A stretch of 50,466 bases of DNA from Bacteroides sp. (GTDB taxonomy: Bacteria; Bacteroidota; Bacteroidia; Bacteroidales; Bacteroidaceae), in the NCBI GenBank assembly GCA_017621035.1, contig JAGATY010000017.1, positions 1 through 50,466 of the forward strand, written 5' to 3'. Both the position numbers and the translations under genes were made by a program. A model generated the notes under the pieces. The model was not told the origin of the DNA and did not search any database. It saw nothing but the letters and a program-made list of their open reading frames with translations. This document shows, in pieces, positions 7,031 through 42,874 of the stretch (positions are counted from its first letter, which is position 1; each line of letters opens with the position of its first letter).

Positions 7031-7140
7031 CCCTCCGCATTAAAAGGAACGATGCACAAGATGGCATCTTATGTTGCACAAGATGGCATCTTGTGTAGCA
7101 CAAGTTGGCATCTTGTGCAGAGGAGGTACTAGTGCGGAAG
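7031..7140. repeat. Dispersed element A, copy 1, with 22-bp palindrome array
   Basis: The core holds three units at 7054, 7076 and 7098, exactly 22 bp apart, each an imperfect palindrome of the type CACAAGAT-GGC-ATCTTGTG. CTCCGCA on the left and TGCGGA on the right suggest short terminal inverted repeats. A near-identical copy in opposite orientation lies at 31693-31815. Confidence 0.85.
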
Positions 7141-7246
7141 TAAGAAAGAAGCAGTCCCGCACCTGTCCGGTAACTATCCGAAACATGTGCGGGACTGATG
7201 AAAATGGGGGAAAGTGTGAGTGGGAAGAGTAGGCGGAACAGATGCT

Positions 7247-7834
7247 TTACAGCTTTGCCAGCTCTCTGTACAACCGTTGCACCGGCAAGCCCATGATGTT
7301 GAAATAACTTCCGCTGATGTTCTCTACGCCGATGAAGCCAATCCACTCTTGCACACCATAGGCACCGGCCTTGTCCATCGGGTGATAATTATCTACGTAG
7401 TAGGCAATCTCTTCCTCAGAAAGGCGGGCGAAGTGTACTTCGGTGCGGGCAGAGAAGCTATGTTGCCAGTCGGTTGTGGTAAGACAAACGCCTGTAAACA
7501 CCTCATGTCTCTTGCCCGACATGGCTTGAATCATGCGGATGGCATCTTCTCGGTCGGTTGGTTTTCCCAAGACACGCCCCTCCAGCCACACGATGGTGTC
7601 GGCCGTAATCATCAGTTCGCCGGGTTGGAGAAGGGTGCGATAAGCGTCGGCCTTCTCTTTGCTGATGTAGAGCGGAATGTCTGCGCCTTGCAGGGTGTCA
7701 GGGTAAGATTCATCGATGTCAGGTAGGGTGCGCACCTCATAGTCAACTCCCAGGCCGGTCAGTAACTCTTTCCGTCGGGGGGAGTTACTGGCCAGAATCA
7801 CTTTGTACTTCTTTAGATTGTCTAGCATACTCAT
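7247..7834 (-). CDS. maf: Maf-like nucleotide pyrophosphatase
   Basis: A 195-residue cytosolic protein with the Maf signature ILASNSPRRKELL near residue 14 and the conserved TADTIVWLEGRVLGKP segment. Maf proteins hydrolyse non-canonical or modified nucleoside triphosphates (dTTP, UTP or m7GTP by subfamily) to the monophosphate plus pyrophosphate. The segment GAYGVQEWIGFIGVENISGSYFNIMGLPV is typical of the C-terminal half. It is the last gene of a minus-strand cluster, 21 bp after the KdsC-like gene. Substrate subfamily is not assigned. Confidence 0.93.
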   Translation of the reverse strand: MSMLDNLKKYKVILASNSPRRKELLTGLGVDYEVRTLPDIDESYPDTLQGADIPLYISKEKADAYRTLLQPGELMITADTIVWLEGRVLGKPTDREDAIRMIQAMSGKRHEVFTGVCLTTTDWQHSFSARTEVHFARLSEEEIAYYVDNYHPMDKAGAYGVQEWIGFIGVENISGSYFNIMGLPVQRLYRELAKL

Positions 7835-7855
7835 ATCTTTCTTTATCGTGACTTG

Positions 7856-8386
7856 TTACCATCCGAAGGCTTTCTCGTTGGCCAGCCACAAACCATTCAC
7901 TTTCAGGTATTGTTCCACTATGTCGCGCCCGCATCCGTAACCACCTTCGGCATGGGAGATATACTTGGAAATGGCTTTTACCTCGGGTACGGCATCCCTC
8001 GGACAACAAGGAAGACCGCACAGACGCATCACTTCCAGGTCGGGAATGTCGTCACCCACGTAGAGAATCTCTTCATTGGAGAGGCCATGACGGGCACAAA
8101 AGTCGTGGTAATCTTTTATTTTAATGGAGGAGCCGATATAGATATCCTCGGCCGGAATACCTAGTGAAAGGAAGCGTTTGCGCACCGCTTCTGTCTTGGC
8201 TCCGGTAATGATGCCCAGGCGCACACCTTGCTTGGCGGCCAGATGAATGGCATAACCGTCTTTGATGTTTACCGTACGCATCGGTTCTCCCTCTATGCTC
8301 ATGGGGATGACATTAGCACTAAGCACGCCGTCCACATCGAAAAGCAGTGCTTTTATCTTCTTCAAGTCGTAATTGATGGTGCTCAT
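7856..8386 (-). CDS. KdsC-type HAD phosphatase
   Basis: A 176-residue HAD-superfamily protein with motif [11 protein letters not shown] (residues about 14-23), a Thr in [11 protein letters not shown], and motif IV in [12 protein letters not shown]. The capless short form and the [34 protein letters not shown] tail match KdsC, which dephosphorylates Kdo-8-phosphate to Kdo for lipid A-core synthesis. A KdsA homologue, catalysing the preceding step, lies at 42894, so the pathway is present. The gene sits between a DUF2520 protein and Maf in one cluster. A related sugar-phosphate phosphatase remains possible. Confidence 0.85.
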
Positions 8387-8421
8387 TGTTGTGTATGATT
8401 TAAGTTTGATGATTGCTAAGT

Positions 8422-9249
8422 TTAAGACTTGCGAGAGGCTGGTTCGGAAGATGACGAGCGTGCCATCTGATGAATACTCTCACTCAAGGCTTTGTAAAGG
8501 GATTGAAGATGCGGTTCGTCGGCCAGCATCTGCAAGTGCTTTTCCATGACGTTTACATCGTTGCGCACGGCCGGGCCGGTTTGTGCTTGCCGAGGGTCTA
8601 ACTGGTGCACCTTGCGAGCCGTTTCGTCAATCAGCGAAAGCATGGATGAAAAGGGAAGGTTGTATTTCTCCAGCAATCCGGCACTCAGGGCATACATGTG
8701 ATTGGCAAAGTTACTACAGAACACGGCGGCCAGGTGAAGAGAGCGACGTTGCTCAGAGTCAGCTTCGTAGACATGGTTTGTCAGCTCTCCGGCCACTTCT
8801 TTCAAGAGGCAGACATCGTCAGCGCAACGAGCCTCGACAAAGAGAGGTATCTCGCTGAAGCATACGTCGCGTTGCTTACTGAACGTCTGCATGGGGTAGA
8901 ATACTCCGTAACGGTCGGCACCGTGCTCCTCCCAAATGTTCATCGGGATACTGCCTGCCGTGTGTACCCACAACGACTCTTCCCTACCCTTCAGCAGTGA
9001 AGGAATCAGTTCGGGCAATACGGCATCCTTCAGGGCTACGATGTACAGGCCGGCTTCGGTAGTCAGGCCATCAATCTCTGTCACAGGTTCGGCCTGCAAG
9101 AGTTCGGCCAGTTGGGTGGCACTCTCATTCGTGCGACTATAAACCTGCACAATGGTATAGCCCGCCTGCTTGAGAGCTTTGCCCAAATGGGTAGCCAAGT
9201 TGCCTGCACCTACAAGTACAATGGGGAGAGAATGGGTGAGCTCTTTCAT
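8422..9249 (-). CDS. Rossmann-fold DUF2520 dehydrogenase-like protein
   Basis: I start this 275-residue protein at the ATG at 9249 ([20 protein letters not shown]); a longer reading would overlap the upstream gene. The N-terminus has the dinucleotide motif [11 protein letters not shown]. The C-terminal half carries the helical DUF2520 domain ([20 protein letters not shown], then [15 protein letters not shown]), an arrangement related to NADP-dependent ketopantoate or pyrroline-carboxylate reductases. The reaction is unknown. It follows the membrane-protein gene by 7 bp and precedes the KdsC-like gene. Confidence 0.8.
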
Positions 9250-9256
9250 GGTAGCC

Positions 9257-9586
9257 TCATCTTGTTGCCAACCAATAGAGTATGATGCCCAACACCAGTA
9301 AGGCAATGGGCAACAGATAGGCCGACATGGTTCCTATCAATGCAGATATCAAACCGAAGTTCAGAATGAGCCACAACCCGATGAGGACTAAGCCAACCGA
9401 CTTGTCGTGTTTGAACAACAGGAAGATAATAGCTGTATAAAGCAGGAAGTTGTCTTTGTTCATCACCCACGGAAGGCCGATGGAAGCAAAGTGAATCAAC
9501 TTATCTGCCAGGTATAAGATGCCGAAAACAATCAGCGTGATAGCGGTTGCCTTGTACGTGTCGCGATTATTGTTTGCCTTTGCCAC
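9257..9586 (-). CDS. Small multi-pass membrane protein
   Basis: A 109-residue protein I do not recognise with confidence. After a polar N-terminus (MAKANNNRDTYK) it has about four hydrophobic segments, roughly residues 13-30, 45-58, 64-80 and 86-106, so it is an inner-membrane protein. It is coupled to its neighbours: it starts 2 bp after the nitroreductase stop codon and ends 7 bp before the DUF2520 start. It has a general resemblance to the LiaF/TM1-type small membrane domain of Bacteroidetes, but no clear catalytic residue. Confidence 0.75.
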   Translation of the reverse strand: MAKANNNRDTYKATAITLIVFGILYLADKLIHFASIGLPWVMNKDNFLLYTAIIFLLFKHDKSVGLVLIGLWLILNFGLISALIGTMSAYLLPIALLVLGIILYWLATR

Positions 9587-9588
9587 AG

Positions 9589-10125
9589 TTACTCTCCTCC
9601 GTATTTATTGAGATGAATCTTCTCCCACTGGAGATGCTCTTCGTTGAAAGGTTTACGCTCCATGCCCTTATGACCAATGGCAATCACGCTCAACACTTGG
9701 AGCTGCAAGGGGAGTTCCAGTACATCGTGCACATAATCATTGCTGGGAATACCGCTTACCGTCAGACGTTCGCGCACCTGAACCCAACAGCTTCCCAAAC
9801 CCAGGTCTTCGGCTTGCAATTGAAGGTAGATGGAAGCGATGGCAGCATCTTCAATCCAAACGTCGCTTGCTAACGGATCGGCCGTCACTACCACAGCCAG
9901 AGCGGCATCGGCAATAAACTGAGAAGCCTGCTCCTTACAGAGTGAAAGCTTCTTCAACACTTCTTTATCATCTACTACCACAAACTGCCAAGCATTGCTT
10001 CTCTTGGAAGTTGGTGCCATCAGTGCAGCTTTCAGCAGGCTTACCACCTCTTCCTGAGTCAGTTCCTCGTCAGTAAACTTACGCATGCTGCGGCGATTCT
10101 TAATCAATTCACTAAAACTTTCCAT
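9589..10125 (-). CDS. Nitroreductase family FMN protein
   Basis: A 178-residue protein beginning MESFSELIKNRRSMRKFTDE, the FMN-phosphate-binding RRSxRxF motif of the nitroreductase family. APTSKRSNAWQFVVVDD and GLGSCWVQVRER are also typical. Members use NAD(P)H to reduce nitro compounds, quinones or flavins; the physiological substrate here cannot be told. It is the first gene of a five-gene minus-strand cluster ending with Maf, with a -7 box at 10148. The short length fits the subgroup without extended C-terminal arms. Confidence 0.9.
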   Translation of the reverse strand: MESFSELIKNRRSMRKFTDEELTQEEVVSLLKAALMAPTSKRSNAWQFVVVDDKEVLKKLSLCKEQASQFIADAALAVVVTADPLASDVWIEDAAIASIYLQLQAEDLGLGSCWVQVRERLTVSGIPSNDYVHDVLELPLQLQVLSVIAIGHKGMERKPFNEEHLQWEKIHLNKYGGE

Positions 10126-10147
10126 AATCTTTTAGTTTATTAGGGGA

Positions 10148-10155
10148 CAAAGATA
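10148..10155 (-). promoter_or_regulatory. -7 box of the nitroreductase-Maf cluster
   Basis: Minus-strand TATCTTTG, 22 bp before the nitroreductase start codon. No clear -33 box was found. Confidence 0.55.
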
Positions 10156-10265
10156 GAGAAAAGATACGAAAGTGAATACGAAGCAAGAAATATTTCAAAA
10201 GCGATAGAAATAGAACTCTTTTGGATTTTCTGAATCAAATATTCTCCTATCTCCAATAAAATAAA

Positions 10266-10273
10266 TAACTTTG
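10266..10273 (+). promoter_or_regulatory. -7 box TAACTTTG before the DUF4062 remnant
   Basis: An exact TAnnTTTG match about 71 bp before the start codon. It suggests that the remnant may still be transcribed together with the gene behind it. Confidence 0.5.
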
Positions 10274-10343
10274 CGATAGTTCAATCCAATATTTTTAATG
10301 AGTGCAGATAAAACATCTTTAAATCATTGCAACCTGATATCGT

Positions 10344-10721
10344 ATGAAACGAATAAGAATATTTATAAGCAGTGTGCAAAGTGAATTTGCAAAAGAACGG
10401 GCAATGCTTTGTCAGTACATTAGAACAGATGCTTTGCTGGGTAAGTTCTTTGAACCATTCATTTTTGAAGAAGTTCCGGCAAATGAAAGCGATCCAAAGT
10501 GTTCCAGAGATGTACCAGAGGCGTACCAGAGCGTGCCAGAGCAACTGATTGAACTCATAAAGAAGAACTCCTCTATATCAAGAGCCACACTTTCTAAACA
10601 GTTGAAGATTAGCGAAAGACAAGTAAGAAAAATAATAGAACAGTTACGCAACAGTGGGCAATTAACCCGTGAAGGGGGTGATTATAATGGAAAATGGGTG
10701 ATTCATGAAATAGAACGCTAA
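10344..10721 (+). pseudogene. Internally deleted DUF4062 / HTH protein remnant
   Basis: A 125-residue ORF. Its first about 47 residues (MKRIRIFISSVQSEFAKERA, then FFEPFIFEEVPA) match the start of DUF4062 proteins. Its last about 60 (LIELIKKNSSISRATLSKQL, ISERQVRKIIEQLRNSGQL, then WVI) match the C-terminal winged helix that such proteins carry after an AlbA_2 ATP-binding domain. Full-length relatives are several hundred residues, so most of DUF4062 and the AlbA_2 domain are missing. The joint lies near a hinge where the DNA word ACCAGAG or a variant recurs three times (about 10508-10540), which could have favoured the deletion. The frame is open, so a short product could still be made. Confidence 0.7.
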
Positions 10722-10738
10722 CCAATATTTTGCACGCA

Positions 10739-11722: not shown

Positions 11723-11743
11723 ACACCACGCACTTTTCACCGG

Positions 11744-11825
11744 AAGAGCACGCTGTTACAACCCAAAGAGCACGCAGTTATAAAGAAAAGAGCACGCAGT
11801 TACAACCGTAAATGCGTGCTCTTTT
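11744..11825. terminator. Terminator with three tandem 22-bp left arms
   Basis: The word AAGAGCACGC starts at 11744, 11766 and 11788, exactly 22 bp apart. The last copy pairs over 13 bp (11786-11798) with the right arm at 11813-11825, ending in TTTT. Any of the three left arms could pair with the single right arm. It lies between two convergent genes and can serve both. Confidence 0.75.
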
Positions 11826-11844
11826 GTCAGGTATCAATCGTATA

Positions 11845-14784
11845 TCAGAGAACAACGTAGACTACAAAGCTATGAGCCGGAACGTTAACCGTTGCGCCTA
11901 CGGTTTCGGTTTCACCCGTCATGTAGTTAGTCCAGGTTCCTTCCAAACCGCTCTTAGGCAGACTGACAGCCTTGGTGTCATGGGTGAAGTTACCCAGTAC
12001 CATCAACTTCTTACCGGTTACACTCTCAGAGTAGAGTGAGCGACCTTCCAGCCAGTTACCGGTTTCCACCTGTGTTGTTGAGTTCCAATTGTGGGTAACG
12101 TTAGAGACATTCCAACTGAAGGTTGCTTCGTCGAACAGTTCCGGATAGCCGTTACGCAGCTGCATCAACTTGCAATAAGTGTCATACAAACCCTTGCGGT
12201 CGGCATTATCAAAGTACTCCCAGCGGATGGGCTTCCGGTCTGTACGATGTTCTTCACCATTAACGACCTCGCCTGAAGAGTTAGCATTGATGGAGACATC
12301 GTAGCCCAGTTCACCAAATTGCCATATCATCTTCGGGCCTGGAACGGTGAGGAAGAAGGCGGTATTTACGGCCAATTGCTTCATGCGGGTAGTAAGGTTG
12401 GTCTGCATGTCGTAGTGCCCCCACATAACTTGCTTGTAACCCATGCGTTCTTCATCGTGACTCTCCATGAATCCTACCCAGTTTGGAGTGCTTCTGTACA
12501 TGCTTGCAAAGGAACTGTTTTCACCCCAAGCCATGGCCGACTGGCAATATGCGTTATTCAGGTTGTTCCACATATGGAGACCGTCTGCAGCCAACTCTTT
12601 TTCTTCAGCGTCGGCACAGAAGTGTTCAAGCACAACAAAAGCATCTGCTTTCACCGCTTTGATGGCAGCATTGTAGTCCTTCAAGATGGCAATACGGCTG
12701 GCATCATAAGCACTATTATCGGCAGAGGCAGACTTTCCTGCGTTTTGTGTAAAGCCCTTAGTGAGGTCGAAACGGAAACCATCCAGCTTATATTCTGTCA
12801 GCAAGAACTGCAAATTGCGCTTTACAAACTTGCGGACAAGCTCACTTTCATGGTTGAAGTCGTGGAACACACTGTACGGGTGAGGGGCATCGACGTTGAA
12901 CCAGGGGTTGTTCTTAGCCGTCTTGTTGTTGGCACTGTCCCAATAGAGCTTGGCAAAGGGGTGTGCACCGGTGGCATGGTTATACACAACGTCCAGGATT
13001 ACAGCGATACCATTCTGGTGGCAGATGTCGATAAATTCCTTATACATCTTCTTGGTACCATAGGCCTTATCCATAGCGAAGAAGAAGCAAGGGTTATATC
13101 CCCAGCTATCGTTACCGTCGAACTCTTGTGTCGGCATCAGCTCAATGGCATTCACGCCCATGGCCTTAAGGTAATCCAGCTTAGCCAACGCACCGTTCAA
13201 GTCGCCCGATTTGGTAAAGTCACGCAGGTGCATTTCGTAGATGACCAGATTGTTGGGTTCGGCTATGGTGAAGTCTGACACCTTCCAAGCGTACTCATCT
13301 TCCTGAATTTGGAAGGTTGAAACCACACCCTTGGCACCTTCGGGATAGGTCAGATTGCCGGGATAAGTGGAAGAAGATATCCACTTGTCGTTGTCCGGGT
13401 CGAAGATTTTCTCGGTATAAGGGTCGGCCAGACGCATGGAACCATCCTCTTTGGTGCCCACATAGTACTGGAATGCAACCTCGTCGGTGGAGCTGAGATT
13501 GGTCAACGTAATCCACCAGCATCCGGCAGCATCGTCGCGATACATCTGCGATTGTCCGTTCTCATCGTTGCTCAATGTCCATTTATTGAAGTCACCCACC
13601 ACGTAAGCGTAATCCTTATGGTTGCCATTGAGGTCCTTATCATAGAGCACGAGGGTTACTGTTGAGTTGTCGATGATGTTGATACCCTCCACTACACCGG
13701 CAGGCATGGTGGCATACTTGATGGCAGCAGGCTCGAATGCCTTGTACTTATCATCCTTCACGGTGATGAAGAGGTCGGCTGTTTGTGATTGTGCATCGGC
13801 ACTACGAATCACCACACCTATCTTATTTATAGCCATCTCTCCGCTGGCAAACCACTCGCGAACGGTGGGTGTGAGGTCGAGGCTCCAGGTGTTGTCGCCC
13901 AAGTTGGTCATCTTGAACTTATCTTCGTTTTGTCCCCATGTGGTAATTACATGCTCCCAAGCATCTTCTGTACCGGCACCAATGTGCACATAAAGGGCAC
14001 TTTGGCCGTAGATTTTCTCACCGTTGGTTACTTTGTAGACGATTTTCAGTGCCTCATCTGCGTTGGCTTCGCTCGGAATGGTGGAGAGTCCGGCCGGCAA
14101 CGAAGAGGCGAGACCTTGCTGAGTGATGGTGATGGTCTCTTTCAACGTACCACTCTTAATGATGACTTTAGCCTCGCGAGCCGCCAGTTCCTGGTTGGCA
14201 GCCACGTTCAAAACTACCTCTGTTTCAGTCAGTGCACGGGTATTGACTTGGGTCAGCCAAGCAGCTGCTTCCTTATCAATCTCCACTTCAAAGGCCAAGT
14301 TATGCTTTACCACCAGCTTCACTTCGCCACCTTCGGCACTCACGCTGAAGCTGTTTTTGGTCAGCGTAAGGGCATCTTCCGGCTTTTGTGTAACCTTGAA
14401 AGAGAGGGTTTTGGTACCACAAATGATGGAAACTTCGGCCGAGCGAGTATCTCCGGTACTGTTTTTCTCGGTAGAGATGGTCACCGTATGGTTTCCGGCC
14501 TTACCCGATTGCGGTTCTACTTTGCACCACGATGCGGCTCTGGTGGCCGTTTCGCTAACTACCGCCTTCCAAGCATTGCTTGTTTCAAAGCTGAATGACT
14601 GGGTGGTGGTTGCCGTACCATCGAAGTGCATGCCTTCGGTTATCAGATTCTGGTCTGCATCCGAAAGCTCGATGCTGTCGGGCAGAGGTTCGTCGTCACT
14701 ACTACAAGCCGTGAATGCTCCCAGCAGTGTCACACACATTAAATAGAAAAAGAAAGGGAATTTACGTACATTCATTATGCGCAT
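11845..14784 (-). CDS. Secreted GH13 alpha-amylase/pullulanase-like lipoprotein
   Basis: A 979-residue lipoprotein: the N-terminal signal ends in GAFTACSSDDEPLP, whose Cys and following acidic residues suggest outer-membrane, surface-exposed placement. Two BACON-type beta-sandwich domains follow (about 40-135 and 140-225), then starch-binding and N-terminal GH13-associated beta domains. The catalytic barrel starts near residue 520 (LVIYEMHLRDFTKSG). GH13 motifs are ILDVVYNHATG, GFRFDLTKG (nucleophile Asp), VVLEHFC (acid/base Glu) and FMESHDEER (third acid). It should cleave alpha-glucan linkages of starch or pullulan. No SusC/SusD genes are adjacent. MNVRKF at 14775 is an alternative start. 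Confidence 0.9.
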   Translation of the reverse strand: MRIMNVRKFPFFFYLMCVTLLGAFTACSSDDEPLPDSIELSDADQNLITEGMHFDGTATTTQSFSFETSNAWKAVVSETATRAASWCKVEPQSGKAGNHTVTISTEKNSTGDTRSAEVSIICGTKTLSFKVTQKPEDALTLTKNSFSVSAEGGEVKLVVKHNLAFEVEIDKEAAAWLTQVNTRALTETEVVLNVAANQELAAREAKVIIKSGTLKETITITQQGLASSLPAGLSTIPSEANADEALKIVYKVTNGEKIYGQSALYVHIGAGTEDAWEHVITTWGQNEDKFKMTNLGDNTWSLDLTPTVREWFASGEMAINKIGVVIRSADAQSQTADLFITVKDDKYKAFEPAAIKYATMPAGVVEGINIIDNSTVTLVLYDKDLNGNHKDYAYVVGDFNKWTLSNDENGQSQMYRDDAAGCWWITLTNLSSTDEVAFQYYVGTKEDGSMRLADPYTEKIFDPDNDKWISSSTYPGNLTYPEGAKGVVSTFQIQEDEYAWKVSDFTIAEPNNLVIYEMHLRDFTKSGDLNGALAKLDYLKAMGVNAIELMPTQEFDGNDSWGYNPCFFFAMDKAYGTKKMYKEFIDICHQNGIAVILDVVYNHATGAHPFAKLYWDSANNKTAKNNPWFNVDAPHPYSVFHDFNHESELVRKFVKRNLQFLLTEYKLDGFRFDLTKGFTQNAGKSASADNSAYDASRIAILKDYNAAIKAVKADAFVVLEHFCADAEEKELAADGLHMWNNLNNAYCQSAMAWGENSSFASMYRSTPNWVGFMESHDEERMGYKQVMWGHYDMQTNLTTRMKQLAVNTAFFLTVPGPKMIWQFGELGYDVSINANSSGEVVNGEEHRTDRKPIRWEYFDNADRKGLYDTYCKLMQLRNGYPELFDEATFSWNVSNVTHNWNSTTQVETGNWLEGRSLYSESVTGKKLMVLGNFTHDTKAVSLPKSGLEGTWTNYMTGETETVGATVNVPAHSFVVYVVL

Positions 14785-14813
14785 AATATTTGATTAAAGT
14801 TATACAAACATCG

Positions 14814-14821
14814 CAAAGGTA
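14814..14821 (-). promoter_or_regulatory. -7 box of the GH13 gene (TACCTTTG)
   Basis: Minus-strand TAnnTTTG match about 30 bp before the start codon. Confidence 0.55.
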
Positions 14822-14981
14822 GCGCAATTTGTCTAGAGGGGAAACAGCTAAAGGAAGAAAAGCAAAGATAAAGTACTCGAAAACGTTTGCAACCCAACAG
14901 ATTCCATCCTCACCCACTCCACTTGGCACTTGAATTTCAAGACCGGATGTAAACCTCTTCTCACTTCTCTTGAAAACTCTT

Positions 14982-15016
14982 CTTAACGTCAGTTCGACTT
15001 ATGGCCTGAAAGACCA
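14982..15016. repeat. Partial copy of the long-hairpin repeat
   Basis: The stretch TTAACGTCAGTTCG, then TGGCCTGAAAGACC, matches the left end of the hairpin element at 49572-49604 with a few mismatches. Only this end is recognisable here. Confidence 0.6.
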
Positions 15017-15099
15017 TCTAGCAAATTCAGGTTTCTGATTCTTTTCCATATCCCTTCTCATCCCTCATGAAATCACCACTCATCCCCACCCCCTCCAGA

Positions 15100-15170
15100 A
15101 GTGTTCCTAGGTCATATAACGACCGATGAAAAGAAGAAAGGCTTTCTTCTTTCAGATAAAAGCCTTACTT
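15100..15170. repeat. Dispersed element B, copy 1 (one clear unit)
   Basis: It contains GTGTTCCTAGGTCATATAAC, one copy of the palindrome AAGAAAGGCTTTCTT at 15134, then CTTTCAG and AAAGCCTTACTT. The second copy (21383-21500) is inverted and has three palindromes. The distance between the shared CCTAGG and CTTTCAG marks is 43 bp here and 87 bp there, a difference of exactly two 22-bp units. The rest of the gap 14785-15353 shows no gene. Confidence 0.85.
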
Positions 15171-15321
15171 GTTTTCAACAAACGTAATTTGATGTGGAAT
15201 GAGTGGGCAAATGGGGACGGATGAGTGGGCAACCGAAAGGGCATGAGAAGATGCTTCGGGAAGAATGAAGTGCCAACAAGAAAGGTGGGCACAGGGGAAC
15301 GGAAGATTGAGAAAATCTTGC

Positions 15322-21382: not shown

Positions 21383-21500
21383 AAGTAAGCCTTTTAACTG
21401 AAAGAAGAAAGGCTTTCTTTTGCCTAAAGAAAGGCTTTCTTTTATCATAAGAAAGGCTTTCTTCTTTTCATCAATCGTTATATGACCTAGGAACACTCCT
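21383..21500. repeat. Dispersed element B, copy 2 (three 22-bp units)
   Basis: The palindrome AAGAAAGGCTTTCTT starts at 21405, 21427 and 21449, exactly 22 bp apart, with differing 7-bp spacers. It is followed by TCGTTATATGACCTAGGAAC, the inverse of the sequence in copy 1 at 15100-15170. A further degenerate unit is visible in phase at 21383. The rest of the gap up to 21723 shows no supported gene. Confidence 0.85.
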
Positions 21501-31583: not shown

Positions 31584-31692
31584 AAGAAAACAGATGTTTC
31601 TTGCCTGCGTCTCTCATTCCGCCCCGCATCCGTACACTGTCGGAGCCATCGGCAGAGCGTTACTTACCACCCCTCACTCCTATTCTTCTCAA

Positions 31693-31815
31693 CCTCCGCA
31701 CTAGTACCCATCATGCACAAGATGCCAACTTGTGCTACACAAGATGCCATCTTGTGCAACATAAGATGCCATCTTGTGCATCGTTCCTTCTAATGTGGAA
31801 GATGAGAAGAGTAAA
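31693..31815. repeat. Dispersed element A, copy 2 (inverted)
   Basis: Reverse complement of the element at 7031-7140, nearly identical over more than 90 bp. Three palindromic units start at 31715, 31737 and 31759, exactly 22 bp apart. CCTCCGCACTAGTAC marks one end. It lies between the divergent ftsK and DUF5063 genes. The rest of the gap 31510-32045 holds only promoters. Confidence 0.85.
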
Positions 31816-31930
31816 TGCGGAAGGCGGGAGGTTTGTATGCGGAGGACGAAAAGTAGCTGTCCGGAAGAGGCAGACAACGTATGGGGAGCTGTGGCCGAAG
31901 AGGTGCGAAAGCTAAAAAGCACGCTTTTGC

Positions 31931-33339: not shown

Positions 33340-34521
33340 ATGTATAAGGTATATCTCAAACCCGGAAAAGAGGAATCATTGAAACGTTTTCACCCTTGGG
33401 TGTTCTCCGGCGCCATTGCACGTCTGGACGGTGAACCGGAAGAGGGCGAAACAGTGGAAATCTATACAGCAAAGAAAGAGTTCATTGCCAAAGGACATTG
33501 GCAGATTGGAAGCATTGCAGTGCGTGTGCTTACCTTCAAGCAGGAGGAAAGCATCGACACAGACTTCTGGAAACGGAAGTTGGAAACTGCCTACCGGATG
33601 CGCCAAAGCATTGGACTAGCCGGCCGCACAGACAACAATACCTACCGACTGGTACACGGTGAGGGCGACAATCTTCCGGGACTGGTCATCGACATTTACG
33701 GGCGCACTGCTGTGATGCAAGCCCACTCAGCCGGCATGCACCTAGATCGGATGGCCATTGCCGATGCGTTGAGTGAGGTGATGAAGAGCGAGATAGACAA
33801 CATCTACTACAAGTCGGAGACAACTCTTCCTTTCAAAGCTGACCTCTATCCGGAAAACGGCTTCCTGAAAGGCGGCAGTGCCGACAACATTGCCACAGAA
33901 TATGGACTGAACTTTCACATTGACTGGCTGAAAGGTCAGAAGACAGGTTTCTTTGTTGACCAGCGGGAGAACCGCTCCCTCCTGGAGCATTATGCCAAAG
34001 GTCGCTCAGTGCTGAACATGTTCTGTTACACGGGAGGCTTCTCGGTCTATGCCATGCGAGGCGGAGCTAACTTAGTTCACTCGGTAGACAGCTCGGCCAA
34101 AGCCATCGAACTGACTAACAAGAACATTGAATTAAACTTCCCCGGTGACCGGCGTCATGCCGCTTATGCAGAAGATGCTTTCAAGTTTTTGGACCGCATG
34201 GGCGACCAATATGACCTGATTATTTTGGATCCTCCCGCCTTTGCCAAGCATCGCGACGCCCTGCGTAACGCACTGCAAGGCTACCGCAAACTGAATGCAC
34301 GCGCTTTCGAGAAGATTAAGCCGGGCGGAATCTTATTCACCTTCTCCTGCTCACAGGCTGTCAGCAAGGAGAACTTCCGTACCGCCGTGTTCACCGCAGC
34401 AGCCATGTCGGGACGAAGTGTGCGCATCTTACACCAGCTGACTCAGCCGGCCGACCATCCGGTCAACATCTATCATCCGGAAGGTGAATACTTGAAAGGT
34501 TTGGTACTCTATGTAGAGTAA
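33340..34521 (+). CDS. RlmI-type rRNA (cytosine-C5) methyltransferase
   Basis: A 393-residue protein. An N-terminal PUA domain (YLKPGKEESLKRFHPWVFSG) binds RNA. It is followed by the RlmI central segment RLVHGEGDNLPGLVIDIYG and a Rossmann methyltransferase with the SAM motif VLNMFCYTGGFSVYAMRGGA and the catalytic-site motif LDPPAFAKHRDAL. FTFSCSQAV supplies the conserved Cys. Family members make m5C in 23S rRNA (m5C1962 for E. coli RlmI). The site here is inferred from the family only. It is third in the DUF5063 operon. Confidence 0.88.
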   Translation: MYKVYLKPGKEESLKRFHPWVFSGAIARLDGEPEEGETVEIYTAKKEFIAKGHWQIGSIAVRVLTFKQEESIDTDFWKRKLETAYRMRQSIGLAGRTDNNTYRLVHGEGDNLPGLVIDIYGRTAVMQAHSAGMHLDRMAIADALSEVMKSEIDNIYYKSETTLPFKADLYPENGFLKGGSADNIATEYGLNFHIDWLKGQKTGFFVDQRENRSLLEHYAKGRSVLNMFCYTGGFSVYAMRGGANLVHSVDSSAKAIELTNKNIELNFPGDRRHAAYAEDAFKFLDRMGDQYDLIILDPPAFAKHRDALRNALQGYRKLNARAFEKIKPGGILFTFSCSQAVSKENFRTAVFTAAAMSGRSVRILHQLTQPADHPVNIYHPEGEYLKGLVLYVE

Positions 34522-34565
34522 AAGCGCTCTTAAACCTAACAAAAAGCGCTCTTACTCTTAAAAAG
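34520..34565. repeat. 22-bp array, AAAAGCGCTCTTA word
   Basis: The word AAAAGCGCTCTTA starts at 34520 and 34542, exactly 22 bp apart, separated by a 9-bp spacer. AGCGCT inside it is self-complementary. It lies just at the end of the rRNA methyltransferase gene. The gap to 34868 holds this array and two -7 boxes. Confidence 0.7.
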
Positions 34566-34620: not shown

Positions 34621-34628
34621 TATCTTTG
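34621..34628 (+). promoter_or_regulatory. Upstream -7 box TATCTTTG before the MFS gene
   Basis: An exact TAnnTTTG match about 240 bp before the start codon at 34869. It would make a long-leader transcript and is the first of two candidate promoters. Confidence 0.45.
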
Positions 34629-34762
34629 CACTGTGTTTTTCATGGTATTAGATTTAAGGTTAATAAGGATTGGGTGTCTGGGATAGATACCCTTCTTTTT
34701 TTATATACCCCTTACATCTTCTTTTTTGCCCCTCTACACGTCACACTTCCGATAAATTACAT

Positions 34763-34770
34763 TACTTTTG
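34763..34770 (+). promoter_or_regulatory. Downstream -7 box TACTTTTG before the MFS gene
   Basis: An exact TAnnTTTG match about 100 bp before the ATG at 34869. It argues against start codons upstream of it. Confidence 0.5.
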
Positions 34771-34868
34771 CAAGGAAAAGCAGGAAGCAGCCCTCATCTT
34801 TTCCTGAAAGATACTGGCCGTTTCCTTACAGAAAAACACATCTTTCACTTAAAAAAAAGTTAGATCTT

Positions 34869-36685: not shown

Positions 36686-36698
36686 TTTTCTCACCACC

Positions 36699-36848
36699 GG
36701 CCACAAGCTGATGTCATCATTGGCTACAAGCTGATGCCATCATTGGCTACCGGCTGATGTCACCATTGGCTACAAACTGATGTTTTTATCGGCTACCGAC
36801 CGATGTTTTCACCGACTACATGCCGGTGTTTTCATCGGCCGGTGGCTT
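36699..36848. repeat. 23-bp tandem array, seven units
   Basis: Units begin (GGCTAC or a variant) at 36699, 36722, 36745, 36768, 36791, 36814 and 36837, a strict 23-bp period. The unit is of the type GGCTACAAGCTGATGTCATC plus 3 bases, and its GATG-x-CATC core is palindromic. Units drift progressively towards the 3' end. The array fills the space between the bifunctional nuclease and rsmE. Confidence 0.9.
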
Positions 36849-36888
36849 ATGTCGTTATCTGACACAAACTGAAATCATTATCATAATC

Positions 36889-37587: not shown

Positions 37588-37596
37588 GGGACCCTC

Positions 37597-37729
37597 GCCC
37601 CAGAACTCCGGACTCTCCCCCCTGACCCCCTCCCTGGAGGGAGGGGGAGGAGATACCGATGGTAACTTAAGTCCCCCTCCGAGAGGGGGTGCCCAAAGGG
37701 CGGGGGAGGTATATCGGCATAACACTGAA
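37597..37729. repeat. GC-rich dispersed element C, copy 1
   Basis: It contains GAACTCCGGACTCTCCCCCC, a CCCTCC-CTGG-AGGGAGGG type hairpin, AGTCCCCCTCCGAGAGGGGG and the GGGCGGGGGAGGT word. An inverted, longer copy lies at 37834-38036. Confidence 0.8.
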
Positions 37730-37746
37730 GTAATCATTTACAAGAT

Positions 37747-37795
37747 AAGCCCCTCTCAACTTATCCCATACGGATTTGTTGAGAGGGGCTTTTAG
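37747..37795. terminator. Bidirectional terminator, rsmE / SLC13 gene
   Basis: Perfect 14-bp arms at 37747-37760 and 37778-37791 (AAGCCCCTCTCAAC and its complement) between the two copies of element C and between two convergent genes. Confidence 0.85.
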
Positions 37796-37833
37796 TATCT
37801 TTACCCCCTCCCTTCTGGGGAGGGATGGGAAGG

Positions 37834-38036
37834 GGCTTCAGTATTGTGCCGGTGCACCTCCCCCGCCCTGCGGGCACCCCCTCTCGGAGGGGGACTTGGG
37901 ATAGCACCGGTATCTCCTCACCTTCTTTACCCTGAAGTGTTAATGGTAAACCCTACTATCTCCTCCCCCTCCCTCCAGGGAGGGGGCCAGGGGGGGAGAG
38001 TCCGAGGGGGCCAGGGGGGGGGAGAGTCCGGAGTTC
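37834..38036. repeat. GC-rich dispersed element C, copy 2 (inverted, expanded)
   Basis: The reverse complement carries the same blocks as copy 1 in the same order (GAACTCCGGACTCTCCCCCC, the CCCTCC hairpin, AGTCCCCCTCCGAGAGGGGG, GGGCGGGGGAGGTG). It also has an inserted segment of about 50 bp and a tandem duplication of the GGACTCTCCCCCCCTGGCCC block. Confidence 0.8.
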
Positions 38037-38050
38037 GGCTCGGGCTGTTC

Positions 38051-39910: not shown

Positions 39911-39951
39911 ATATATAAATAAGGTGTAATGTGAATTGTTAGATTGTAGTG

Positions 39952-39959
39952 CAAAGATA
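39952..39959 (-). promoter_or_regulatory. -7 box of the SLC13 gene (TATCTTTG)
   Basis: Minus-strand exact TAnnTTTG, about 42 bp before the start codon. No clear -33 box was seen. Confidence 0.5.
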
Positions 39960-40046
39960 GGGGATATTAAGGAGGTGGCCTAATAAGGGATAGTTTTTTC
40001 ACAAATATTGAGATAAATAGTCTTTCTAAAAAACTTACACCTATTG

Positions 40047-40077
40047 TTGCATATATAAAATGCTTTTCATACATTTG
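40047..40077 (+). promoter_or_regulatory. Promoter of the HU-like gene
   Basis: TTG (40047-40049), a 20-bp spacer and TACATTTG (40070-40077). Transcription would begin near 40084, so the six-unit array that follows lies within the 5' UTR. Confidence 0.6.
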
Positions 40078-40100
40078 CACCGACACTGAAAAGGTGACTG

Positions 40101-40242
40101 ATGAGACCGTGATGTCATGCAAAATGAGACACGGTGTCTGACCACAAATGAGACACGGGGTCTCACCACTCATGAGACACGGGGTCTCATCACCCATGAG
40201 ACACGGGGTCTCATTACCCATGAGACACGGGGTCTCATTTCA
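40101..40242. repeat. 24-bp palindromic tandem array, six units
   Basis: ATGAGAC starts at 40101, 40124, 40148, 40172, 40196 and 40220: one step of 23 and four of 24 bp. The typical unit is the palindrome ATGAGAC-ACGGG-GTCTCAT plus a short spacer. The last three units are nearly identical. It lies in the probable 5' UTR of the HU-like gene, between divergent genes; nothing else is seen in the gap 39911-40308. Confidence 0.9.
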
Positions 40243-40308
40243 GCCCCCATTTCGGTCGAATTAGTAAAGAGATAGTTATTTTAGTAGTAACCTTAAAATC
40301 AAGAGACT

Positions 40309-40842
40309 ATGGCAAAGTATAAGCTAGTCAAAAGAGGTAAGCCCGGGGATACCCAGGGCGCAAAAAAGTGGTATGCAACCCCTATTAGTGAACGTGCTCA
40401 GAGCACCACTGCGACTACTCGCGCAGCTACTCAGAACACCAGTACAGCCCCCACTGAGATGGACGGTGCGTGCTATCTTTTACGTAAATATTGTGAACAA
40501 CAGCTCCTTCAGGGACACATCGCTACCATCCCCTACTTTGGTACGATGCGCATCACCTTTAAGAGCACCGGTGTGGAGGACATCAGTACCTTCAATGCCG
40601 GGACTATGATTAAGAACCCTCGCCTCATCTTTACCCCTAGTAAGGAGTTCCGCGAGGCAGTTATCAACAACCTTACTTTCGAGAGTGCCGGCGTCATCTC
40701 CGAAGGCATCACCTACGGCAGCGTCAGCAACTATCTGACCGCCACCGGTGCCGCATCGGGTGGCACAACCGAAGATAGCGGCAACACCGACAGTGGCAGC
40801 AGTAGTGGCGGCAGCACGGATGATGAGTATCCGATGGAATAA
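40309..40842 (+). CDS. HU-HIG-like DNA-binding protein
   Basis: A 177-residue protein starting MAKYKLVKRGKPGDTQGAKK, the pattern of Bacteroidetes HU-HIG proteins. These are long relatives of HU with an inserted Ig-like part. The HU-like fold covers about residues 1-130 (CYLLRKYCEQQLLQGHIATI, PYFGTMRITFKSTGVED, NPRLIFTPSKEFREAVINNL). The C-terminal tail is Gly/Ser/Thr/Asp-rich and probably disordered. Such proteins are presumed nucleoid-associated. It starts a plus-strand run with miaA only 9 bp downstream, and its long leader contains a six-unit palindrome array. Confidence 0.8.
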   Translation: MAKYKLVKRGKPGDTQGAKKWYATPISERAQSTTATTRAATQNTSTAPTEMDGACYLLRKYCEQQLLQGHIATIPYFGTMRITFKSTGVEDISTFNAGTMIKNPRLIFTPSKEFREAVINNLTFESAGVISEGITYGSVSNYLTATGAASGGTTEDSGNTDSGSSSGGSTDDEYPME

Positions 40843-40851
40843 GGGGGAGTT

Positions 40852-41790
40852 ATGACCAACTCCCCTCTCCTCACCCTCCTCGGCCCCACGGCCTCCGGTA
40901 AGACGGCACTGGCGGCCGAGCTGGCGGTGCGCCTCGATGCCGAGATAATCAGCGCCGACTCCCGACAAGTCTACAGAGGCATGGACCTGGGTACCGGCAA
41001 AGACCTGTCGGACTACAACGTCCGCGGGCATCAGGTGCCCTATCACCTCATCGACATTGCCGATGCCGGCTATCGGTACAACGTGTTCGAGTATCAGCGC
41101 GACTTCCTCCGTGCCTACGAGGAGATTTGCGCGCGCGGACGCCTGCCCCTGCTCTGCGGAGGCACGGGCATGTACCTGGAATCGATACTGAAGGGATACC
41201 GGCTGCTACCCGTGCCCGAGAATCCCGAACTGCGTAATCGGCTGGCCAACAAGACATTGGAGGAGCTGACCGAGATACTGCGCCGGTACAAGACCTTGCA
41301 CAACAGTACCGACGTGGATACCGCCAAGCGTGCCATCCGCGCCATCGAAATAGAGGAGTACTACCGCACACAGGCACCCGAGGAGCGGTCGTTCCCCAAG
41401 CTGGAGAGCCTCATCATCGGGGTGGACATCGACCGCGAACTACGGCGCGAGAAGATCACCCGCCGGCTCCGGCAACGGCTGGACGAAGGCATGGTGGAGG
41501 AGGTGCGACACCTTATATATAATGGTGTACCTCCCGAAGACCTCATCTACTACGGGCTGGAGTACAAGTACCTCACACTGCATGTCATCGGGCAACTCTC
41601 TTACGATGAGATGTTCCGCCAGCTCGAGACGGCTATCCACCAGTTTGCGAAGCGACAGATGACCTGGTTCCGAGGCATGGAACGACGCGGCTTCACCATC
41701 CATTGGGTGGACGCACGCCTGCCGATGGAAGAAAAGATTGCCTTTGTGGTGGATAAACTCAAAAGTATCACTAACTTTGCGTCATCTTAG
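40852..41790 (+). CDS. miaA: tRNA dimethylallyltransferase
   Basis: A 312-residue enzyme that adds a dimethylallyl group to A37 of tRNAs reading UNN codons. It has the P-loop GPTASGKT (residues about 11-18), the substrate-binding DSRQVYRGMDLGTGK, GGTGMYLESILKG, and late FAKRQMTWFRG. Length is normal. It lies 9 bp after the HU-like gene and is probably co-transcribed with it. The lipid kinase follows after 43 bp. High local GC is notable compared with serS or rplU, but codon choice looks native. Confidence 0.95.
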   Translation: MTNSPLLTLLGPTASGKTALAAELAVRLDAEIISADSRQVYRGMDLGTGKDLSDYNVRGHQVPYHLIDIADAGYRYNVFEYQRDFLRAYEEICARGRLPLLCGGTGMYLESILKGYRLLPVPENPELRNRLANKTLEELTEILRRYKTLHNSTDVDTAKRAIRAIEIEEYYRTQAPEERSFPKLESLIIGVDIDRELRREKITRRLRQRLDEGMVEEVRHLIYNGVPPEDLIYYGLEYKYLTLHVIGQLSYDEMFRQLETAIHQFAKRQMTWFRGMERRGFTIHWVDARLPMEEKIAFVVDKLKSITNFASS

Positions 41791-41833
41791 TGTCAAAACT
41801 AAACAGTCAGTAACCAAGTAACAGCAGAGAGCC

Positions 41834-42757
41834 ATGAGTGTAAAGCCGGAGAAATGGGGCGTCATCTATAACCCCAAAGCAGGCACCCGTAAGGTGCAAA
41901 AGCGATGGAAGAAAATCAAAGACTATATGGATGAGATGGGGGTAGACTACGACTATGTGCAGTCGGAAGGCTACGGCTCGGTGGAACGTCTCGCCGGCAT
42001 CTTGGCTAACAACGGATACCGAACCATCGTCATCGTAGGCGGTGATGGGGCACTGAACGACGCCATCAATGGCATCATGAACTCCACCGCGGAGAACAAA
42101 CAAGACATCTCCCTAGGCATCATACCCAACGGAATAGGCAATGACTTTGCCAAATACTGGGGCATGAACACCGACTACAAAGAGGCCGTGGACATGCTGA
42201 TAACGGGACGACGCCGGCGCATAGACGTGGGTACGTGTGACTACTTCGACGGTACCACGCACCGGCGACGCTACTTTCTCAATGCCATCAACATCGGCCT
42301 CGGAGCACGCGTGGTACAGATAACTGACCGGTGCAAACGCTTCTGGGGCGTGCAGTATCTCTCCTGGGTGATGGCACTGCTCTCAATCATATTCGAGCGC
42401 AAGCTACACCGTATGCACCTGAAGATAAACGGCGAGCATATCCGTGGTCGCATCATGACGGTCTGCATAGGCAGTGCATGGGGATATGGCCAGGTGCCCA
42501 GTGCCGTTCCCTATAACGGTTGGCTCGATGTGTCGGTCATCTACAGACCGGAACTCTTGCAACTCTGGGCAGGCTTGTGGCTGCTGATACAAGGCCGCAT
42601 CCTGAACAGTAAGCTCGTCATGCCCTATCGTACCCAGAGAGTGAAGATACTAAGGGCACAAAACGCCGCTGTCGACCTGGACGGACGCCTGTTGGATCGC
42701 CAGTTCCCCCTCGAAGTGAGTGTGCTGCACGAAGCTATCACACTGATCATCCCATAA
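41834..42757 (+). CDS. Diacylglycerol/lipid kinase family protein
   Basis: A 307-residue protein of the DAGK catalytic family (YegS/BmrU-like). It begins with GVIYNPKAGTRKVQ and has the nucleotide-binding VGGDGALNDAINGIMN near residue 69 and LGIIPNGIGNDFAKYWG near residue 95. A beta-rich C-terminal domain follows (residues about 130-307). It would phosphorylate a membrane lipid such as diacylglycerol at the inner membrane, using ATP; the exact lipid is unknown. It is followed by a short 23-bp repeat and kdsA. Confidence 0.88.
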   Translation: MSVKPEKWGVIYNPKAGTRKVQKRWKKIKDYMDEMGVDYDYVQSEGYGSVERLAGILANNGYRTIVIVGGDGALNDAINGIMNSTAENKQDISLGIIPNGIGNDFAKYWGMNTDYKEAVDMLITGRRRRIDVGTCDYFDGTTHRRRYFLNAINIGLGARVVQITDRCKRFWGVQYLSWVMALLSIIFERKLHRMHLKINGEHIRGRIMTVCIGSAWGYGQVPSAVPYNGWLDVSVIYRPELLQLWAGLWLLIQGRILNSKLVMPYRTQRVKILRAQNAAVDLDGRLLDRQFPLEVSVLHEAITLIIP

Positions 42758-42805
42758 GGGGGCGGCAACTCGGGACATCGGCATCCGGCAAGCCCAGGCA
42801 TCAGC

Positions 42806-42874
42806 ATCCGATGACCCATTTTATCAGCAAGAAACGACCTATTTCATCCGTAAGAAACGACCTATTTCATTAGT
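42806..42874. repeat. 23-bp array, AAGAAACGACCTATTTCAT word
   Basis: The 19-bp word starts at 42829 and 42852, exactly 23 bp apart. A degenerate unit at 42806 matches 13 of 23 positions in phase. Arms GAAA/TTTC give only weak self-complementarity. It lies just upstream of kdsA. Confidence 0.7.

What the first reader, a model, noticed from the sequence alone, without database searches (positions are those of the whole stretch)
7054..42874. A family of intergenic arrays with a fixed 22-24 bp period and locus-specific core words
At ten intergenic sites I find short arrays whose units repeat at a near-constant spacing. Starts of units: 7054/7076/7098 (22 bp), 11744/11766/11788 (22), 15134 with a degenerate unit at 15156 (22), 21405/21427/21449 (22), 26274/26296/26318 (22), 31715/31737/31759 (22), 34520/34542 (22), 36699 to 36837 in seven units (23), 40101 to 40220 in six units (23 then 24), 42829/42852 plus a degenerate 42806 (23). 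The core words are unrelated between loci except for the two duplicated elements; most are palindromic, some only weakly, and spacers inside a locus can differ while the period does not change. So period, not sequence, is what is shared. About two helical turns per unit would place each palindrome on the same DNA face. Possible explanations: sites for a multimeric nucleoid protein, transcript-end hairpin clusters, or products of an unknown copying process that duplicates 22-24 bp blocks. I know of no description of such a family, but could not search.
Basis: partly seen in the sequence, partly recalled or inferred. Interest (0 to 1): 0.85.

Follow-up and report, generated by a model that had tools for sequence, protein, structure and literature searches.

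The report
Phased site arrays beside HU-like genes
Gut bacteria of the order Bacteroidales carry short DNA arrays between their genes that share one fixed step of about 22 bases but spell different words, and arrays of this kind often stand in front of the genes of a much-expanded family of HU-like DNA-binding proteins, which suggests that each such protein has its own private landing strip.

Summary
All ten arrays are present. In 449 kb of this genome, intergenic self-similarity peaks at exactly 22 bp (33 loci; Markov resamples 0). The peak recurs in three further Bacteroidales samples with unrelated words: 54 word clusters at lag 22 over four samples, against 10 at 21, 14 at 23, 6 at 24. E. 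coli and four genomes of other classes of the phylum gave none; four genomes of other orders gave one.

Units are palindromic more often than chance and keep phase while spacers drift. Lag-22 arrays ignore gene orientation and 3' ends. Several are dispersed: the 7054/31715 word has at least 40 places.

Best explanation: phased binding sites of HU-HIG proteins (PF18291). Matches number 11-34 per genome in nine genomes of the genus and 0-3 in eight outside the order. The window's 24-bp array lies directly upstream of such a gene (40309-40842). Lag 22 is the strongest lag upstream of 16 of 29 HU-HIG genes versus 114 of 1932 others, and of 13 of 15 in a fresh set from named species. One orthologue group shares its word; one orthologue-like pair does not. 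Binding is inferred, not shown.

The parts
7054..7119 (.). F1 array: three 22-bp palindromic units, core GCACAAGATGSCATCTTGTGC
   Evidence: at least 40 places genome-wide; 61 of 61 unit spacings are 22 in the 34 copies found by pattern; one copy lies upstream of an HU-HIG gene at L026:13603
6999..7150 (.). F1 element with flanking degenerate 22-bp-phased units pointing to the centre
   Evidence: 85% inverted copy of 31683-31834; flank logo and phase
31715..31780 (.). F1 array, second window copy, inverted relative to 7054
11744..11807 (.). 22-bp array of AAGAGCACGC between convergent genes; a complementary GCGTGCTCTTTT follows
   Evidence: single in the 449-kb sample
15134..15177 (.). F2 array, short copy (word AAGAAAGGCTTTCTT)
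21405..21470 (.). F2 array, three full units plus a variant unit at 21383
   Evidence: an F2 copy lies upstream of the HU-HIG gene on contig C31
26274..26339 (.). 22-bp array of AAAACGACGTTTT between glutamine synthetase III and a Crp/Fnr-type gene
34520..34563 (.). 22-bp array of AAAAGCGCTCTT
36699..36859 (.). 23-bp array of seven diverged units
   Evidence: single-copy in the genome
40101..40243 (.). F7 array: 24-bp period, core GAGACACGGGGTCTC, directly upstream of the HU-HIG gene
   Evidence: four copies in the genome with differing spacers
40309..40842 (+). HU-HIG protein (177 aa), HU-like DNA-binding domain with Gly/Ser-rich tail; proposed binder of the F7 array
   Evidence: PF18291 E 2.1e-12; a profile of this and four other HU-HIG proteins matches HU/IHF chains of the PDB, best E 5.2e-9
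42806..42880 (.). 23-bp array upstream of kdsA

Best explanation
The arrays are phased binding-site arrays for HU-HIG proteins (PF18291), HU/IHF-like DNA-binding proteins that are expanded in the genus (11-34 matches per genome examined). Each array-linked paralogue reads its own word, often a palindrome. The shared fold fixes the step at 22 bp, about two helical turns (23 or 24 in some families), so that neighbouring dimers sit on one face of the DNA and can bind side by side. The array in front of the protein's own gene would give self-regulation. Copies of the same word elsewhere would be further sites of that protein; around the F1 core, weaker oriented units fade outward over about six units, as expected if binding starts at the core and spreads. 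Arrays change by whole units and some are carried by MITE-like elements. SHOWN (computed): the fixed step, its restriction to Bacteroidales among the groups sampled, phase kept under divergence, association with HU-HIG genes, shared words between an upstream array and dispersed copies for several families. INFERRED: binding, one dimer per unit, self-regulation, spreading.
For: Copy number: PF18291 matches 11-34 in nine genomes of the genus; 0-3 in eight genomes outside the order, which show no comparable 22-bp cluster peak. Association: in the survey loci 5 of 7 HU-HIG genes have a 22-24-bp array within 300 bp upstream versus 69 of 1782 other genes; at lags 16-20 and 26-30 it is 0 of 7. Strongest lag (14-35, 320 bp upstream plus 60 bp) is 22 for 16 of 29 HU-HIG genes versus 114 of 1932 others, Fisher p 1.8e-12; without the three fetched because of their arrays, 13 of 26. 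Fresh test, all 15 plasmid-collection hits fetched: top lag 22 in 13 of 15 (p about 1e-14 at the 5.9% background), a threshold-passing 22-24-bp array in 6 of 15. Three of the 15 are 78-98% identical to genes seen before; of the other twelve (at most 44% identical) 10 have top lag 22. Word sharing: F1, F2, F5 and F7 each have a copy upstream of a different HU-HIG gene of this genome and further copies elsewhere. The word CGTCTGAC is upstream of HU-HIG proteins 74-98% identical to each other in G021, G216, G232 and B. finegoldii, lies beside one in G211, and is also dispersed. Phase: 61 of 61 F1 spacings are 22; the flank motif is in the main phase in 19 of 32, 20 of 35, 11 of 21 and 4 of 9 cases at 8-44, 44-88, 88-132 and 132-176 nt. 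Information per flank unit falls 10.7, 7.6, 6.6, 5.3, 3.5, 2.3, 1.6 bits in 36 flanks of 18 copies, each flank allowed to shift by up to 2. F7: spacers differ, step 24 kept. Palindromic units most enriched at 22-24. HU kinship by sequence.
Against: No binding data. Many HU-HIG genes lack an array: 13 of 29 do not have 22 as top lag, and only 11 of 30 listed genes have a 22-24-bp array at threshold in 450 bp (13 at lags 20-25); the short (<195 aa) class is mostly without (3 of 15 as called, 5 of 17 after correcting two over-long ORFs). The fresh query came from the long class, so 13 of 15 speaks for that class. L127 and L363 are 78% identical yet have unlike upstream words, so words either change fast or are not set by the protein; this took my confidence from 0.77 to 0.75. 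PF18291 also matches 9 of 14 control genomes, E. coli among them, so counts include ordinary HU. G007 has 15 matches but only one lag-22 locus in 120 kb, with 3 at 23 and 2 at 24. For the window arrays 11744, 26274, 34520, 36699 and 42806 and for dispersed families F3 and F4 no cognate gene was found; 3 of the 11 HU-HIG matches of this genome were not located. A single-sequence AlphaFold model failed (pLDDT 42). The L118 array folds well as hairpins in its orthologues.
Confidence: 0.75

Rival explanations
1. RNA or DNA hairpin arrays: the units act as strings of stem-loops in transcripts (leader or 3' region) or as cruciforms, and the spacing reflects stem geometry (22 = two turns of an A-form helix). 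Near HU-HIG genes they would be leader structures.
For: Units are palindromic more often than chance. The L118 array folds in six orthologues: consensus -27.0 against -4.7 (sd 2.2) for column shuffles, two pairs with changes on both sides, one of them a clean A-T to C-G, six pairs broken in at least one sequence. In 31 HU-HIG upstream regions, chosen mostly for having arrays, 24 hold a TAnnTTTG box (recalled motif), upstream of the best 22-bp segment in 18 of the 24, so arrays could be transcribed.
Against: G.T versus A.C mismatches in stems 36 versus 43, transcript strand 14 versus 18. Left and right F1 flanks of one copy are no more alike than those of different copies, 6.39 versus 6.79 of 22. 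No orientation bias, no 3'-end bias at lag 22. No Rfam family on the arrays in the window or in seven 20-kb loci. F1 flank consensus is not palindromic.
Confidence: 0.13
2. Neutral or selfish repeats: MITE-like or REP-like elements that carry minisatellites, with a copying step that favours about 22 bp; the nearness to HU-HIG genes is hitch-hiking.
For: F1, F2 and F7 are dispersed; the L121 element is about 248 bp with terminal inverted repeats and two 95%-alike copies in G021. Unit number differs in whole 22-bp steps between F2 copies. BrickBuilt of P. gingivalis is a 23-nt minisatellite in a MITE (PMC4596501).
Against: Association with one gene family and one orthologue group keeping its word. 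Phase kept in strongly diverged flanks. No RAYT gene in G000, G021, G216, G211, G232 or G007, two in G236. The terminal-repeat search in five genomes gave 13 matches of 17 bases, five of them at MITE copies already known and eight with 2 mismatches, not looked into; no autonomous partner was identified.
Confidence: 0.09
3. The lag-22 peak is a chance or artefact pattern, from one family counted many times or from simple repeats.
For: Dispersed F1 copies inflate raw counts; heptamer arrays exist (lags 14 and 21).
Against: Peak stays after merging related words within each sample and after removing short-period repeats (98 runs at 22, 30 at 23, 10 at 24, 31 at 44, at most 14 at any other lag from 13 to 45). 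Absent or nearly so in control genomes.
Confidence: 0.01

Closest known systems
HU/IHF superfamily, HU-HIG clade (PF18291)
   Same: Proteins beside the arrays match PF18291 over its cut-off, and a profile of five matches HU/IHF chains of the PDB.
   Different: HU is known as a weakly specific architectural protein and IHF as reading one consensus (recalled); here paralogues appear to have separate words in phased arrays. The paper that I recall for this clade (Burroughs and others 2017) is not held, so what it says on sites is unknown to me.
BrickBuilt minisatellite MITE of Porphyromonas gingivalis (PMC4596501)
   Same: Intergenic, 23-nt units without spacers, dispersed (19 copies), in a MITE-like element; predicted long stem-loops.
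   Different: Published as an element of P. gingivalis with homologues in P. gulae and IS5-like terminal repeats; no order-wide step, many-word pattern or protein partner in the sections read. Sequence kinship not tested here.
REP/BIME elements and RAYT transposases
   Same: Dispersed intergenic palindromes, sometimes in arrays.
   Different: No RAYT gene in this genome or in five of six others of the genus searched; direct 22-bp step; many words per genome.
Iteron arrays and polymerising site arrays (ParB/parS, Fur-type operators)
   Same: Phased repeats read by a dimeric or multimeric protein; 22-bp steps occur in iterons (recalled).
   Different: Located genome-wide and upstream of HU-like genes; one step shared by dozens of unrelated words.

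Membership tests
HU-HIG (PF18291) for the gene at 40309-40842 | Score over the Pfam cut-off | tested here: met
   47.6 bits, cut-off 26.2
HU-HIG (PF18291) for the gene at 40309-40842 | HU/IHF kinship by sequence profile | tested here: met
   Profile A1 (5 HU-HIG proteins, window first) matches PDB HU chains, best E 5.2e-9
HU-HIG (PF18291) for the gene at 40309-40842 | HU fold in a structure model | tested here: inconclusive
   Single-sequence model, mean pLDDT 41.9, not searched
HU-HIG operator-like array | 22-24-bp array upstream of HU-HIG genes more often than upstream of others | tested here: met
HU-HIG operator-like array | Word kept among orthologues | tested here: inconclusive
   Kept in a group of four (74-98% identical); not kept between L127 and L363 (78%)
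HU-HIG operator-like array | Physical binding | not testable with these tools
   none
REP/BIME with RAYT | Y1 transposase (PF01797) in the genome | tested here: not met
   0 matches in G000, G021, G216, G211, G232, G007; 2 in G236
REP/BIME with RAYT | GTAG or CGTC tag at the stem foot | tested here: inconclusive
   Not seen at the F1 or F2 stem by eye; the L121 word does contain CGTC; no scan made
BrickBuilt | 23-nt repeat between leader and tail with IS5-like terminal repeats | not tested
   No P. gingivalis sequence was compared
CRISPR array | Repeats of 24-48 bp with unique spacers of regular size | tested here: not met
   Unit plus spacer together are 22-24 bp
Rfam RNA family | Match at the gathering score | tested here: not met
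   No match on arrays in the window or in seven loci of 20 kb
Intrinsic terminator or 3'-end element | Excess near stop codons | tested here: not met
   lag 22: 16 of 61 within 60 bp, 16.9 expected; lags 23-24: 15 of 24, 10.1 expected, a mild excess

The most novel reading that the evidence does not exclude
Bacteroidales run a many-code nucleoid: one genome holds one to three dozen HU-like proteins, many with a private word and all sharing a ruler of about 22 bp. Each protein starts a filament on its own high-affinity array and spreads over fading sites, controls itself, and marks its own set of loci (at least 40 places for F1). Words and proteins co-evolve quickly, so related species carry different code sets.
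Probability: 0.4. Interest if true: 0.93.

Novelty: new variant of a known kind. Interest (0 to 1): 0.86.

Why it matters
It gives a testable role to a large family of HU-like proteins whose sites I found described nowhere in my searches. It also joins two puzzles, the HU-HIG expansion and the abundant 22-24-bp intergenic repeats of Bacteroidales (BrickBuilt may be one), into one system. If binding is confirmed, a site map for each paralogue could be read straight from sequence, and common gut bacteria would have many sequence-coded nucleoid proteins rather than one general HU.

Tried and rejected
Rejected: terminators or 3' elements at lag 22; RNA-only selection; REP/RAYT; one family inflating the peak; simple repeats. 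Led nowhere: autonomous transposon sharing the terminal repeats of the L121 element; identity outside exact repeat runs, which did not separate site conservation from block duplication (means 0.66 at lag 22, 0.72 at 23-24, 0.57 at 13-20, 0.62 at 25-45 without 44); a syntenic block of 60-100 kb in four genomes of the genus, with too few arrays to measure turnover; AlphaFold of the window protein, pLDDT 42, no fold search made; plasmid search with F1, no match. The global autocorrelation stands out clearly at 22 in this genome only; in the other samples codon-like multiples of 3 rank about as high or higher. At the L118 locus six orthologues keep units 1-4 without gaps; the array is missing in G207 and G009 and not recognisable in G169.

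Literature: ten searches. Abstract and sections 5, 7 (part 1 of 2) and 8 of PMC4596501 read; passages by term only of PMC5771137, PMC3733652 and PMC10969869; the HU-HIG paper looked up by DOI is not held. No description of an order-wide 22-bp array class or of HU-HIG sites was seen in these listings and passages; subscription papers are mostly not in the library.

Limits: ORFs were called by length only, so some 'intergenic' DNA is miscalled. Clusters were merged within each sample, not between samples. The long/short HU-HIG split misplaces two genes with over-long ORFs (L026, L342); corrected by reading, 11 of 12 long and 5 of 17 short have top lag 22. Some of the 29 and of the 15 genes are close relatives (21 clusters at 50% identity among the 29, 10 with a top-lag-22 member), so the p-values overstate independence. 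The 5.9% background for one search comes. The 31 regions were chosen, mostly with arrays, and its background includes genes inside operons. Six HU-HIG-like hits in the phage collection were not fetched. In one search only 5 candidates per genome were scored. HU-HIG copies were counted in no Bacteroidales genome outside the genus. One of the 62 'other Bacteroidales' loci bears the title Clostridium sp. (L084).
Full report
WHAT IS THERE. The ten arrays are in the window as described. The genome lies in one Bacteroidales genus: Rfam finds the Bacteroidales-1 RNA at 5705-5883, and a contig of same-genus genome G007 has the length of the Mediterranea massiliensis contig (709,922). Two window elements are pairs of copies. 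Genome-wide the 7054/31715 word (F1) has at least 40 places, two of them weak, with 40 of 52 candidates scored; the 15134/21405 element (F2) about 9; the 40101 word (F7) four; the 36699 array is single.

IS THE STEP REAL. In 449,466 bases of this genome the intergenic lag spectrum peaks at 22: 33 loci against 0.0 in Markov resamples; lags 21, 23 and 24 gave 5, 2 and 4. Raw lag-22 counts elsewhere: 10 in 400 kb of G021, 10 in 336 kb of 18 named Bacteroides loci, 26 in 964 kb of 62 other loci, Bacteroidales but for one title; 4 in 180 kb of G003 and G017, 1 in 120 kb of G007 and 1 in 60 kb of G039. Outside the order: 3, 0, 0 and 0 in 100 kb each of four genomes of the same class, 0 in four of other classes of the phylum, 0 in 200 kb of E. 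coli K-12. Merging related words within each sample leaves 15, 7, 10 and 22 clusters at lag 22 in the four Bacteroidales samples, 54 in all, versus 3, 10, 14, 6 and 2 at lags 20, 21, 23, 24 and 25; the class group gives 1, the phylum group 0 at lag 22 and E. coli no array at any lag tested. Exact runs of 11 or more with short-period repeats removed: 98 at 22, 30 at 23, 10 at 24, 31 at 44, at most 14 at other lags from 13 to 45.

ANATOMY. Units at lags 22, 23 and 24 are good palindromes in 33%, 38% and 33% of 88, 21 and 15 arrays, versus 7%, 0% and 13% of random intergenic pieces; at lags 13-20 it is 6% and at 25-42 18%. Some arrays change word every two units without losing step (L056:12377). 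F1: 34 copies found by pattern, 28 with three units, 61 of 61 spacings exactly 22. Its 91 unit centres are GCC (50) or GGC (41) and nothing else, so the unit reads the same in either orientation or is inverted now and then. Outside the core, both flanks carry degenerate units in 22-bp phase pointing to the centre, with information per unit of 10.7, 7.6, 6.6, 5.3, 3.5, 2.3 and 1.6 bits outward. Left and right flank of one copy are not more alike than flanks of different copies (6.39 versus 6.79 of 22), which speaks against a stem, while neighbouring units of one flank are (8.65 versus 6.68), which points to local duplication. F2 copies differ by whole 22-bp units. F7 keeps its 24-bp step while spacers drift and, in one copy, the word itself drifts in several units. 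A G021 family (CGTCTGAC, array L121:7460) sits partly inside an element of about 248 bp with terminal inverted repeats. At the L118 locus the array is kept without gaps in six orthologues, missing in two other genomes and not recognisable in a third.

CONTEXT. No preference for convergent, divergent or co-oriented gaps, no 3'-end excess at lag 22 but a mild one at 23-24, no strand bias of wobble-type mismatches, no Rfam family on arrays tested, no RAYT gene in six of seven genomes of the genus searched.

THE PARTNER. The gene directly downstream of the F7 array, 40309-40842, is HU-HIG, an HU-like DNA-binding protein. That led to a test. PF18291 matches: 11 (this genome), 34, 34, 33, 26, 34, 15, 21 and 15 in the nine genomes of the genus searched; 1, 2, 2, 2, 0, 3, 3 and 2 in eight genomes outside the order. 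The family also rings in 9 of 14 control genomes, E. coli among them, so ordinary HU is counted too. Arrays of the CGTCTGAC family had already been found at places that proved to lie beside HU-HIG genes in G021, G216, G211 and G232. In this genome 8 HU-HIG genes were located (five listed, three by Pfam or my own profile), and 6 of these have an array upstream, each with another word: F1 (L026, the array 120-190 bp before the start at 13603), F2 (C31), F5 (C57), F7 (window), CTTCGTACAACC (C48) and AAAAGGAGGCTC (C26); the genes on C22 and C37 have no convincing array.

STATISTICS. Listed genes: 11 of 30 have a 22-24-bp array at threshold in 450 bp upstream (13 at lags 20-25). Survey loci: 5 of 7 HU-HIG genes with a 22-24-bp array within 300 bp upstream versus 69 of 1782 others; at lags 16-20 and 26-30 it is 0 of 7 versus 25 and 28 of 1782. 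Strongest lag 14-35 upstream equals 22 in 16 of 29 HU-HIG genes versus 114 of 1932 others (Fisher 1.8e-12). Three of the 29 were fetched because of their arrays; without them it is 13 of 26. Proteins of about 200 aa nearly all have it (13 of 14 as called, 11 of 12 after correcting two miscalled starts), short ones mostly not (3 of 15; 5 of 17). A fresh test was then made: one long-class HU-HIG protein was searched in the plasmid collection and all 15 records hit (Bacteroides finegoldii 6, Bacteroides sp. CACC 737 1, Phocaeicola massiliensis 6, Parabacteroides distasonis 2) were fetched with 600-bp flanks. In 13 of 15 the strongest upstream lag is 22; 6 of 15 pass the array threshold at 22-24; the two misses, L367 and L369, have 21 on top. 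Three of the 15 are 78-98% identical to genes seen before; of the remaining twelve, 10 have top lag 22. The four proteins with the CGTCTGAC word are 74-98% identical to each other, but L127 and L363, 78% identical, have unlike words. A promoter-like TAnnTTTG box (motif recalled) is present in 24 of 31 chosen regions versus 31% of 2570 other genes, upstream of the best 22-bp segment in 18 of the 24.

READING. The simplest account of one step, many words, spread over the order, phase kept under divergence and association with one expanded family of HU-like proteins is that each array is the phased site array of one HU-HIG paralogue, with self-control at its own gene and further sites elsewhere. 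The fading oriented flanks around F1 fit a start at the core and spreading. Binding, packing and regulation are inferred. A transcript-level role of arrays that lie in leaders is not excluded.

NOVELTY. HU-HIG is a catalogued family and intergenic palindromic repeats are known; BrickBuilt (PMC4596501, sections read) is the nearest published repeat. I saw no report of an order-wide fixed-step, many-word array class or of HU-HIG sites in ten searches (listed under Tried and rejected) of an open-access library. I rate it a new variant of a known kind (DNA-binding protein with phased sites), with the many-code reading as the bold case.

Noticed in passing
34633-34705: Rfam match to FopS (family of paralogous sRNAs of Bacteroidetes), about 70 bp after the 34520 array and inside the called start of the nucleoside permease ORF, whose family match begins at residue 91, so the called start is probably too early.
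   Followed up: no
14983-15025 and 49572-49614: A repeat beginning TTAACGTCAGTTCG, 81% alike, resembles the IS5-type terminal repeat ACGTCAGTTCGA listed for ISPg3 in PMC4596501; perhaps remnants of another MITE.
   Followed up: no
37617-38034: G/C-run-rich inverted repeats (39 nt, 97%, and 90 nt, 84%) between rsmE and a citrate-type transporter gene, with a 24-26-bp direct repeat.
   Followed up: no
50360-50466: Two adjoining heptamer arrays (AATGAAG, TCAACTA) at the window end; heptamer arrays also occur elsewhere in this genome and contribute to lags 14 and 21.
   Followed up: partly
G000:C31:490-1209 and window 40966-41676: Two miaA-like (PF01715) genes in this genome; a second match is also present in several relatives.
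   Followed up: no
L359:601-1218: An HU-HIG-like gene of Bacteroides finegoldii, 98% identical to the HU-HIG gene of L331, is annotated 'DsbA family protein', probably a mis-annotation.
   Followed up: partly
Bacteroidales intergenic DNA, lags 41 and 42: A small second excess of exact repeats at lags 41 (11) and 42 (14) beside the 22-24 peak; P. gingivalis has 41-nt repeats in MITEPgRS (PMC4596501).
   Followed up: no
F1 units genome-wide: The 3-bp centre is GCC in 50 and GGC in 41 of 91 units and never anything else, mixed even within one array, as if single units invert.
   Followed up: partly
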